A stretch of 64,000 nucleotides of DNA from Antedon mediterranea (taxonomy: Eukaryota > Echinodermata > Crinoidea > Comatulida > Antedonidae). Position 1 is the first letter of the stretch, and the number at the start of each line of letters is the position of its first letter. Below the pieces are notes generated by a model. It saw only the letters and a list, made by a program, of their open reading frames with translations, had not been told where the DNA came from and did no database searches. A program made the position numbers and the translations under genes. Location of the stretch: contig NC_092679.1 of NCBI RefSeq assembly GCF_964355755.1, forward strand, positions 19,148,932 through 19,212,931. Direction: 5' to 3'. Of this stretch, positions 3,888 through 63,200 are shown piece by piece.

Positions 3888-6800
3888 ATGTCAATGACTA
3901 CAAGGAGAGGTACTGAACGCCCAGTTAGACGATCTAGCCGTTTAAATAAGGGTAAAAATACTGGTTCTTTGTCAGGAAGTAGCGCAACCTCAACAACATC
4001 GGCAGCCACAGCAGCAGCAGGTTAGTACTCTTTGTTAGCACAATGTAGGCCTACCTGTGTCTCTTGTTCGTTGTGCCTAGCGTATCGTTTTTGTGTGTAG
4101 CCTAGGTCTAAGCCTAGGCCTAGGGATTCCTATATTTAAGTGACGTATTGAAACAAGAGGTGTTTAATACTAAATAATAGGCCTAGGCTAGGCATATTAT
4201 TTTTTCTGTTGATAATAAATACTGTAATTTAAAATAAGCCAAATAATTGTTTGTAGTTATTTAAAGTAACTGAGTATTTACTAAATTATTAATGAATGTA
4301 ACTGCATATTTTAGGGTTACAATTAAATATTTATAGGCCTAGTTATTTTATACGCCTTATTATTTATTATAGAATAGAAGGGTAGGATGTCAGGCCTGAG
4401 TTGCAGATAGTACACTAATATAATACAGAATGATAATAATACTTTTGTTGTTTGCAAATTTGAGTAATAATAAATATTGTAAATAAAAAATGCCTGTGGA
4501 GTTGAGTAAATTAAAATAACAACTTTTTGTGCACCACCACTATAGGCTATTGCAACTTGAATATTAATATTTAATAATATTAGTTAAACATTATAATAAA
4601 TATGAAAGCTTTAGTCATGATTGGGAGTTCAATATTCCCTGATAATATTAATATCTTTTTATGATAATATTTAATTATTTTTTTGCATTATTACAGTATA
4701 GTACTTTTTTATTCAAATTAAACTTATCTCCAATATTATATATTAATATTTAATTTTTTTTTTATATTATTAATTAAAATGCTACAGAATAATCTACAGA
4801 ATTTGATCTGTGACAGTTATATCAATGAATAATCACAAGGAACATTTCTTGTAATTTAAAAAAAAAAATTATGACATTTTGAGGAAGGAATAACAATACA
4901 GTAGAGGATTGGCTATTTAAAAATTCAAATTTGTTACTATTATTATTGCCATCTACTGTAGCTGGGTAAAGTATCCTAATCGGTCAATAAAGATGCCGCT
5001 ATTTGGTGTTCTGTTGGACTCTACTGTGGATTACAACATAAGCGGCGGTTGAGTCATATAGTTTTTAAATATTTACTGTTACTTACAGTATAAAGTAATA
5101 ACATTGCCCATACCAGTACAGTATTTGTACAGTATTTGTACAGTATTGCCATAACACTACAGCCATTCTATAATCTTAAAATCCATTGTAATAATCATAA
5201 ACTGTACAGACTGTAGTATTATTAACTATTTTTATTTCTTTTTTTTCTCAGGACCGTCATCTGCCTCTAGGGCTAGGAATTGTATAAATGCAACAGAACA
5301 CAGGAACCAGCCATACAGCCTGCGGAGGAAGTCGTCAACATCAAGTGTAGAATTAGAGAAAGTAAGTAAAATGGTTATTTGGGAGAGTTCCCAGCTTACT
5401 GTACAGGGGATCCAGTTGAGGAGAGTTCGTGGCACTGTATTCAAATAGTTACTGTTATTGTTAAGCTCTGTCTACACTATCAAACTTTATGTGACAAAAA
5501 AATGTGATGTGGCCATACAGACATGATGTCATATCACTATCATATTTAGACATATCACTACCATATTTGGGCACATTATACTTTTTTTTTTTCAAACTAG
5601 TTTGATAGTGTAGACAGGGCATAACTCTAAGTGCAACCTGGCACATTCTGTTGGCTGTTAATTATGTTCCCCAAGTTACCTAATCTCAGGTCTGCTATAA
5701 TGAACAATGGTCAGCTGACTGGGTGATTGTCCAGCCATACTGTCCTTTGTGATAAGTGTTTATTGTGGGACCCCCATTATATTGTGCTAACTAGTACAGG
5801 AGACTTTTCAAAAGAGAGATTTCGCAATCTTACGATAACGAAAACGGATACGTCACGCACACGTATTCGTTTTTTCGTAAGCCAGTAAAAATCTGTTTCG
5901 CATGGCAACGAAATATTGACTGCGGTAAATTTGAGCGAAGCGCAGGTGGTACTAGTTGCTTGGCTGCCTAGGCCTAGCGTAACATTAAAGCGAGTGAGGA
6001 CTTTAAAAACTGCTATTTATAAATCAAAATTGACTTGGCATTTTAGTAAATTACTTTAGTAAATTACTTTCAATAAATCTATAATTATATTATAATCATG
6101 AATCATTCCTGATTCAAATGCAAAATGTGCAAAATAGATAAAAACTATACTCGTTTTGTAGTTACGAATATGACTGGTGATATTCGTCAACACGAATACG
6201 CTTTACGAATATGAAATGGGGATCAGCTCAAAAGTTTCACAAATGTGTGACGTATCCGTTTTCGTTATCGTATTCGTAAGGTTGCGAAACCTTCCTAGTT
6301 ACTCTCTACTACTAATACTATATTACAGGTAATTGAAAGATTGTTGTTAAAAAGTCTGTAAAAAATCCACATTCTTGCACATTAATGTGCTTGGGTACAC
6401 ACAGTATTATTACTAAAGAAGAGTAAAATCAATCAATTTTTGTAATTTACTCTTCCCTGGTACTACTGTATTACAGTAACCGTCTTTCTCACAGTTCAAG
6501 TCCTAAACAAATTTTTTTTATGTGCAAGTTTAAACACAGCATCAATTGAAAAAAAATAGTCGAGCGTTCCGGCGGATATTTTACTTCTTTAGTAACTGAA
6601 TTTTTGTTTATGACATAAATAATAGTCATACCCATTGAAAGCTAAAATTCTAAATTTAAAAAATAGAGGGTGTTATTAGTAAATTTATAGAGCATGAATT
6701 CAACTAAAAAATGACACTGTTTACAAAATCAATGTTTGCTTGAGTAGTAATGTACTGGTACTGTACTGTAGTATTCATTTAATTACTACTACTAGAGTTT

Positions 6801-60200: not shown

Positions 60201-63200
60201 GTAATATTGATTTGTAGATTTTCAAGTGTGAAGTTTTCTATCGAGGTTAACTTTAGCTGGTTTCTGCTCATATGCATTATGGGATGGTTGTTTGAACTTC
60301 CGATGTTTCCGCCAGCCCTCTTCTTCAATGCTTTCTCCAGCAACCACCAGGCATCTCTACCTCCTTTGCTGCCGACATCTAACGATGATGTCTTATTAGA
60401 TCACCTGAATATAGTGGACCGAAAGCTTCTTTATTCCTGCTGTCCATACCTAGCGGAAGTCAAGACTCTTCTGACTGGAAATGGTAGCATAGCTAGTAGT
60501 ACACCAATGAAGAAGATTACACCAGTGTCTGCTAACCCACTGCCGAAGCCTCTTATTACAGAAAAACCAATTCAGGTATGAAGATTTGCTCTCAGTGTGA
60601 ACACAACCTTAGCTGAATAGCACTAAAGCCTGTAGTAAAAATAACTAAAACTTATTTTGTATAGACTTAATGTTTTTGAGTGTGTTGATATCTGTCAATA
60701 TGCTTGCTTAAAGTCCTGTCTACACTATCAAACTTTATGTGACAATGTGATGTGGCCATATATGGACATGATGATGTCATATCACTACCATATTTGGGCA
60801 CATCACATCGTTTTGTCGTCAAACTATTTTGATAGTATAGACAGAGCTTAATACTTAATACTATTTATATTTGGTTGTTGTTATATATTTACACCTTCTG
60901 TTGCTAAGCTCATATTTGTTATATGTTGCAGAGTCTCCTCGAGACTAAGGCTGTTCTATGAGATGAGCCTCTGAGTGAAATATTTAATTTAAAAAAATAC
61001 TCATACAAGTTTAATATAATGTTAAAGCCTTGGTTAATTTAAGCAATTAGATATTTTTAATGTGAAGTTCCAGGTTTTAAATATATATATATTATCATTT
61101 CAATGTGTTTTTTTAGGTCCAACTTGAAGATAACTTCTTTGATAATCAGTCGCCGTCCTTAAAGAAAACTGTAGAGTTTGTCTCCAAAAGAATCGCGTCA
61201 AATTGTATCAAAAGCGTTGATGCTAATTTAGTACCGGTTCACCTGTCCGCGGCAACACAGACTTTCAAGTCATGGGCAGAAGACAATGGTGGCGCTGTAG
61301 ATGGTAACACCTTCAAATCAAAAGTGACTGAAATTGAACGACGAGAAAGTAAAATAGCTCAAGAAAAATCCATCACTTTTTCACAAAGGTATGTTCTTTC
61401 CTTTTCTTGTTTAGCACTTAATTTAATTCACTTTATTTATTTATCTTCTATGTCTTTAAAAAATTTATTTTCAAATTTGTGTATAGATTTGTACATGAAC
61501 AGTGCACAATGGCGCTGACCACTCTGTTGCCAGGAGACATAACACAGGAAGTAATGGCAGTTGTTACCAAGGTGACGATCAGACTGGCAATGACGAGGGT
61601 ATTGAAGTGGATCAATACTCAGATTCCAGGTAAATGGAACATCCCACCTTCATTTATATGGACCATTCCACCTTCATTTTTTAAAATCTGGCACTGTATC
61701 TTTTCCACGTCTCGAACCCAGTACTGTAGACTTGCTAGGCAAGCATATTAATATCCAAACACCACTATCACATTGTTTATATATATAACCATTCCCCTTC
61801 TCACTGCTACTACTAAATTACTGTAGCACCTAAACCTACCAACCATCCCCCTCATTTATCTTTTTTCCCCATAATGCAACTATTTTTGTATGTCAATGTT
61901 TGTAGGTGCAATACACACAGAATTAACAGGGGCACTATCTAAGCTGATGAAGTCACAGAAGAAAGATAGCCAAAAACAGAAAGTTGTAATAGTGCCCCCA
62001 ACACACCATGATTCAATGGCACACAGCCCGTCAGAGGTCATTGATAGACTAAAGGTAATACATGTTTTATTCATAGTTCAGGGGCGGATCCATGGGAAGG
62101 CCCACCCTAAATTTTTCAAAGAAAAAAGAAATAGGACATCAAATTAAGCTCAGCCCTTTATTTCACCATTTTTAGGCCCCTTCTTTCAAAATCCTGCATC
62201 TGCCACTGTTAGTGGCTGTTGACTATGTGTCTACTATTTCTACTAATAGAATTTAATTCTTTGTGTTATAATCATCAATTTTATTCAAATTGCATCTATG
62301 GAAAACTTTCTGTCAAAAATCTAATTACTGTAGTAATAATTTATTTATTATCTTCTTTATTGTTTATTTATGTAGATTACAATAAAATAAAGTCACTAAT
62401 ATAGACTTGTTGGTATTATTAACAGTTATTTTGTATTTTTTATAGAATTTGTTGCGTAAATTGTTGTGCAATGCCCCAGTAACTTTAGAAGAAGTGCAAA
62501 CAGAAATGAAATTTGTCAAAAGATCACTGCTAAAAAGACAGGTAAAACAGAGAAATTGAATAGCTGGTTATTGATACTGTATGCATACTTTGTCCAGTAT
62601 CATAGGCAAATTCTGTAATACAGTGTCACATATGTATCACATGTTCTGCCTGTATGTTAGGTCATACGCTTAACCTTAACCACAACAGTACTGTGCAAAA
62701 TATGCCAGATACAGTAGATAATTGGGTGAAAGTTGAATAACCCAACAGCCGGCTAATTCATATAATGTAATTTTTTAATTTGAGATTTTTAATTTACATT
62801 CAACAGGATATGACACCCATTGCATACCAGTCGATTCATTCATTAGTCGCAGAATTGATAGCCGTTCTCCTAGTACAATGCCCGGACTATCTGTCGGATG
62901 CTGCGGCCAATAAGAACAATGGAAACAAGCAGACGACGACGTCCATCAATTATTTTGAAGAAGTTTCTATTCAGCAAAATAGTAAAAATGTAGTAGTATT
63001 GAGAGAGAGTTGCGAAAAACTGGAAGAAACAGATGTAATTAATCAATACAGTGAGAAAAATGCACATATACAAAAGGAAAAAAATACAATGAATTTTGCG
63101 AAGGATTGTACAAATAATAAGGAAAATAAGAGAAGTGATGAAATTACAAGCACAAGCAGAAACCCAGTTACTAATGACAATCAAGAACATGTTCAAATTG

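What the first reader, a model, noticed from the sequence alone, without database searches (positions are those of the whole stretch)
5461..60851. One palindromic MITE family in about 20 copies across 55 kb
About 20 copies of a ~150-bp, almost fully self-complementary element share termini near AGCTCTGTCTACACTATCAA and a core repeating CACTACCATATTTGGGCA. Copies sit in introns of FBXO11, IFT43 and CDAN1 and between genes, but not in exons. Several are full length with intact termini, while others are end-eroded or internally deleted, suggesting several waves. The ends alternate between TTAAGC and TAAAGC, so the target duplication is short and TA-containing; the superfamily is not settled. Transcribed copies would fold into hairpins that could feed small-RNA pathways.
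Basis: seen in the sequence. Interest (0 to 1): 0.6.

Follow-up and report, generated by a model that had tools for sequence, protein, structure and literature searches.

The report
Genome-wide palindromic MITE family, partner unknown
The window holds 20 copies of one short, hairpin-shaped, non-coding transposon that is scattered over every large chromosome of this animal genome; this is an ordinary kind of element, except that its insertion sites do not show the clean target duplication expected and its bare end has repeatedly grown into tandem (satellite-like) arrays.

Summary
A profile search finds 20 copies between 5464 and 60848, 11 with both ends, about 2.7 kb in all. The family is genome-wide: the exact 26-nt end occurs 7132 times in 354 Mb and never in the reversed control. 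It is therefore not a local duplication. The consensus is 161 bp (AGCTCTGTCTACACTATCAAACT...AGTTTGATAGTGTAGACAGAGCT). It folds into a hairpin and carries one to three copies of a 21-bp core. It is a MITE: a non-autonomous TIR DNA transposon, presumably moved in trans.

The superfamily stays open. Ends are flanked by TWA, the target of PIF/Harbinger. But the middle base agrees between the two sides in only 51 of 84 copies (61%), close to the 54-57% that chance at TWWA sites gives and far from a true 3-bp duplication. Insertion at TW^WA without duplication is an unproven alternative. Fifty Harbinger-type transposase loci lack the matching ends.

Beyond the window, the bare 25/26-bp end forms tandem arrays on at least four chromosomes. 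Small-RNA production was not testable. IFT43 was not verified.

The parts
5464..5621 (+). MITE copy, both ends (TTA | TAA flanks)
6831..7007 (-). MITE copy, one end eroded
12851..12996 (+). MITE copy, right end lost
14348..14439 (+). MITE copy with internal deletion, both ends (TAA | TTA)
14443..14586 (+). MITE copy, both ends; shares a single TTA with the copy before it (dimer)
17924..18026 (+). MITE copy, both ends eroded
22508..22595 (+). MITE fragment with tandem 21-bp core units
25365..25527 (+). MITE copy, right end lost; right flank shared with copy 29285
27502..27654 (+). MITE copy, both ends (TAA | TTA)
29285..29437 (+). MITE copy, both ends
30057..30210 (-). MITE copy with both 23-nt ends perfect; inserted in a dispersed repeat that has empty paralogous sites (TTA | TAA)
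30779..30926 (-). MITE copy, both ends
32164..32286 (+). MITE copy, right end lost
32328..32420 (-). MITE fragment, one end
32929..33074 (+). MITE copy, both ends
33292..33433 (-). MITE copy, ends eroded
37263..37332 (-). MITE core fragment
40467..40601 (+). MITE copy with both ends perfect (TAA | TAA)
46058..46202 (-). MITE copy, both ends (TAA | TTA)
60712..60848 (+). MITE copy, both ends (TAA | TAA), near the codanin-1 gene

Best explanation
These are copies of one MITE family: a 161-bp (commonly 125-165 bp), almost fully palindromic, non-coding DNA transposon with 23-bp terminal inverted repeats. Shown here: shared ends, dispersal on all eleven large chromosomes, unrelated flanks, a strong TWA (about Y-T-W-A-R) preference at the insertion point, and hairpin folding. 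Inferred: a DDE transposase encoded elsewhere bound the 23-bp ends and moved the element by cut and paste into TWA or TWWA sites, in introns and between genes. The divergence of copies from the consensus suggests that the main expansion is not very recent. The best guess for the mobilising enzyme is a member of the PHIS group (PIF/Harbinger and allies), because its known members use such AT-rich palindromic targets; this is not demonstrated. Transcribed copies would form hairpins; whether they feed small-RNA pathways is untested.
For: Twenty copies in the window against about zero expected by chance. 7132 exact ends in the genome, 0 in the reversed control; scored hits on C1-C11. Consensus and length distribution. 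Flank preference T at -3 in 70 of 73, A at -1 in 72 of 73, T at +1 in 68 of 73, A at +3 in 69 of 73, left middle base only A or T. Most empty paralogous sites of the 30057 copy carry TTA exactly at the insertion point. Hairpin folds z -7 to -11. Many DDE_Tnp_4 (PF13359) transposases are present in the genome.
Against: No transposase gene with these ends was found: 50 PF13359 loci, with 1.2-1.5 kb each side, hold no matching terminus at their ends (three have only a whole MITE copy or fragment nearby). The near-consensus MITE copies sit towards chromosome ends (48% in the outer fifth) while PF13359 hits sit centrally (7%; p about 4e-10), which gives no support to that pairing. The TWA flanks do not behave as a clean 3-bp duplication (61% agreement).
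Confidence: 0.9

Rival explanations
1. Tourist-type MITE of PIF/Harbinger with an ordinary 3-bp TWA duplication, whose two copies later diverged or were partly homogenised between the two ends (a finer version of the best explanation).
For: TWA on both sides; identical 3-mers in 51 of 84 copies; the copies found through one search show more agreement than the rest; Harbinger transposases are abundant; two dimers share exactly one TWA (window 14440-14442; C6).
Against: Among copies with an exact consensus 5' 70 nt, left TTA goes with right TTA 14:1 but left TAA also goes with right TTA 11:2 (read by eye), so the right 3-mer does not follow the left one even in young copies; T to A transversion is unlikely to reach 39% at about 5% divergence; no matching ends on 50 transposase loci. 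In mPing, an element with altered TSDs still went into TTA or TAA in 45 of 46 insertions (PMC4561436), so carry-over of the donor base is not an established escape.
Confidence: 0.45
2. The element inserts without any target duplication between the two middle bases of a TWWA site (TW^WA); the element is then AAGCT...AGCTT and the W on each side is host sequence.
For: W on the two sides nearly independent; 61% agreement against 54-57% expected from host TWWA composition; no other direct repeat of 2-12 bp at the ends; best alignment to ten paralogous sites of the 30057 copy when 2, not 3, extra bases are assumed; W shows no significant association with any element position, so it does not look inherited.
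Against: In the exact-consensus subset the right base is T in 25 of 28, which random host bases do not predict; the other two candidate empty sites are uninformative; dimers share three bases, not two; the sampled copies are not a random sample.
Confidence: 0.25
3. TTAA-duplicating element (piggyBac, Kolobok or Sola3 type).
For: TTAAGC...GCTTAA ends in some copies; the 30057 copy has TTAA on both sides and fits a 4-bp TTAA duplication about as well.
Against: TTAA on both sides in only 10 of 84 copies; TAAA is as common as TTAA on the left.
Confidence: 0.05
4. Local duplication of an intronic repeat rather than transposition.
For: One pair (25365 and 29285) shares 88 bp of right flank at 94%; the window has about five times the genome average of exact ends.
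Against: Genome-wide dispersal on C1-C11 and otherwise unshared flanks.
Confidence: 0.02

Closest known systems
Tourist-like MITEs of PIF/Harbinger (for example mPing; PMC4561436)
   Same: Short, non-coding, inverted ends, insertion at TWA, high copy number.
   Different: Left and right TWA do not match as a duplication should; no PIF/Harbinger transposase with these ends found; almost complete palindrome.
PHIS groups NuwaII (C|TNA|G target) and ISL2EU (A|AT|T target), PMC4482050
   Same: Palindromic AT-rich target with a preferred base on each side; here Y-T-W-A-R.
   Different: Those groups are defined by transposase and by verified duplications, neither shown here.
Spy transposons (no target duplication, AAATTT target; described in PMC4482050)
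   Same: Possible lack of a target duplication.
   Different: Target differs: about half the left ends are TTAA, not AAA, and the candidate empty sites are shorter than an AAA^TTT insertion would need.
Tetris foldback transposon of Drosophila virilis (PMC4079207)
   Same: A transposon supplying the units of an emerging satellite DNA.
   Different: Here the unit is the bare 25/26-bp end of a MITE, in several separate arrays.

Membership tests
MITE (any superfamily) | Short, non-coding, terminal inverted repeats, homogeneous length, many dispersed copies | tested here: met
MITE (any superfamily) | Target-site duplication | tested here: inconclusive
   61% agreement of flanking 3-mers; no longer direct repeat
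PIF/Harbinger (Tourist) | Identical 3-bp TWA duplication on both sides | tested here: not met
   51 concordant, 33 discordant; P about 1e-12 for 90% concordance
PIF/Harbinger (Tourist) | Autonomous DDE_Tnp_4 element with the same ends | tested here: inconclusive
   50 PF13359 loci examined, none with matching ends; the search was not exhaustive
PIF/Harbinger (Tourist) | Insertion into TWA | tested here: met
   T, W and A dominate on both sides; most empty sites carry TTA
piggyBac / Kolobok / Sola3 | TTAA duplication on both sides | tested here: not met
   10 of 84 copies
hAT | 8-bp target duplication | tested here: not met
   no 8-bp direct repeat outside the ends
Spy | Insertion between AAA and TTT without duplication | tested here: not met
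   about half of left ends read TTAA rather than AAA

The most novel reading that the evidence does not exclude
A MITE family with thousands of copies that inserts at TW^WA without making a target duplication; its transposase group would be a second case, after Spy, of eukaryotic TIR elements lacking target duplications.
Probability: 0.22. Interest if true: 0.6.

Novelty: new member of a known kind. Interest (0 to 1): 0.32.

Why it matters
As a MITE family it is ordinary, though abundant (order of 10,000 copies by a rough scaling). It would matter more if the missing target duplication were confirmed, since nearly all eukaryotic cut-and-paste transposons duplicate their target. The repeated conversion of one 26-bp transposon end into tandem arrays on several chromosomes is also a clean natural series for studying how satellites start from transposon ends.

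Tried and rejected
Searching the genome with the consensus element: no hit, probably because its words are too common and are skipped. COX1 search for organism identity: no mitochondrial contig, so the species was not identified. Text search of papers for the end and core sequences: none. Plasmid collection: none. Harbinger loci: no matching ends; the one weak end-like match (L149) did not hold up. Second and third candidate empty sites (L007, L024) were too diverged to decide the duplication length. Flanks of nine further copies gave no usable empty site. The nested-insertion test returned satellite arrays instead, with single junctions 1:2 between the two models, uninformative. A model in which the donor's W is carried along can give about 2/3 agreement but runs against the mPing experiment (PMC4561436).

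Full report
What is there. A profile search of the window gives 20 separate copies from 5464 to 60848, 2670 bp in total, 11 with both ends recognisable. The consensus from copies in and outside the window is 161 bp, AGCTCTGTCTACACTATCAAACTTTATGTGACAAAAAAATGTGATGTGCCC...GTTTGATAGTGTAGACAGAGCT. It contains a 21-bp unit (CACTACCATATTTGGGCATAT) that varies from one to three tandem copies. Six tested copies fold as long hairpins with z-scores of -7.1 to -11.1.

Context. Sixteen copies lie within the span of a + strand gene with beta-helix exons (about 5.2-33.8 kb), in keeping with FBXO11; the others lie further right, one next to codanin-1 exons. No copy overlaps an exon that matched Pfam. An arylsulfatase and a minus-strand vasohibin (tubulinyl-Tyr carboxypeptidase) gene are also present. 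IFT43 was not verified.

Genome-wide. The window lies on contig C10 of a 354-Mb, 18-contig animal assembly. Similar copies lie on all eleven large contigs, and the exact 26-nt end (TWA plus 23 nt) occurs 7132 times, 0 in the reversed control. Of the first 100 places listed, 37 fall in two tandem arrays and the rest are dispersed. The window holds 7 exact ends, about five times the genome average per Mb, while ten 8-kb pieces sampled elsewhere hold one end fragment only. Near-consensus copies are concentrated towards chromosome ends (KS p about 1e-9), the opposite of PF13359 transposases. The proposed refutation, local duplication with flanks, is therefore rejected, apart from one pair of copies that shares 88 bp of right flank.

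Age. Most sampled copies differ from the consensus by 0-15%, without clear separate peaks. Only 9 copies genome-wide match it exactly over 95 nt. This does not test waves formally, but gives no sign of a very recent burst.

Target site. The ends are flanked by TWA almost without exception, with a weaker pyrimidine before and purine after. If TWA were a 3-bp duplication, the middle base should agree on both sides in young copies. It agrees in 40 of 63 in the main set and in 51 of 84 with the extra ends read. Host TWWA sites alone would give 54-57%. In copies chosen for an exact 5' 70 nt, left TTA pairs with right TTA 14:1, but left TAA also pairs with right TTA 11:2. These last counts were read by eye from short stretches and come from a selected set. 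The middle base is not significantly linked to any position in the element. No other direct repeat stands out at the ends. The copy at 30057-30210 sits in a dispersed repeat; ten paralogous sites fit best if the filled site has two, not three, extra bases, but by a small margin in a diverged repeat. Two other candidate empty sites do not decide. Two dimers share a single TWA, which fits the 3-bp model. I leave the duplication unresolved: TWA target, yes; clean TWA duplication, not shown.

Partner. PF13359 (DDE_Tnp_4; PIF/Harbinger, ISL2EU and allies) rings 150 times. Fifty loci with 1.2-1.5 kb of flank were examined; none has the MITE ends at its own ends, and three merely have a MITE copy or fragment nearby. 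One of these families does have TAA-flanked inverted repeats of its own (L065).

Comparison. It works like a Tourist-type MITE, and by its target it is closest to the PHIS group (PMC4482050). It is not filed as PIF/Harbinger, because the identical TWA duplication was tested and not met and no partner was found. TTAA groups and hAT are excluded by the flank counts. Spy shares the possible lack of duplication but not the target.

Beyond the question. The family's bare end has become satellite-like on several chromosomes: arrays with periods of 25, 26, 42 and 92 bp, all built on the 23-bp end. A comparable route from transposon to satellite is known for Tetris in Drosophila virilis (PMC4079207).

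Verdict. A real and abundant MITE family, not found in the text library available here; Repbase could not be consulted. It is a new member of a known kind. What deserves follow-up is the mismatch of the two flanks and the arrays made of the bare end.

Noticed in passing
G000 C1:410750-412400 (L071); C1:1406480-1410628 (L072 holds the first 1.2 kb): Tandem arrays of 42-bp and 92-bp units that each contain the MITE end; the 42-bp unit joins 16 bp to the 26-nt end, and that array runs into a MITE remnant.
   Followed up: partly
G000 C1:38509857-38510054, C2:39164662-39165009, C3:38508655-38509328, C10:2315342-2316301, C1:20375254-20375303: Head-to-tail arrays whose unit is exactly the 23-bp MITE end plus 2 or 3 bp (period 25 or 26), with different linker bases in different arrays, mostly near chromosome ends. 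They look like separate origins of the same minimal satellite.
   Followed up: no
window 9601-9760; L036; L024: A second palindromic repeat family (ends GCTTGGTTCCCACTA) with copies elsewhere; one copy (L024) carries an insertion of the MITE studied here.
   Followed up: partly
window 11216-12297: A 27-bp tandem array of about 40 units (GGGGACACTTTTGGACACCCTAATGAA), open in several frames on both strands.
   Followed up: no
window 21181-21325: Another palindrome with 51-bp arms, 92% complementary, unrelated to this family.
   Followed up: no
   Followed up: partly
G000, all large contigs: MITE copies concentrate towards chromosome ends while PF13359 transposases concentrate centrally.
   Followed up: partly
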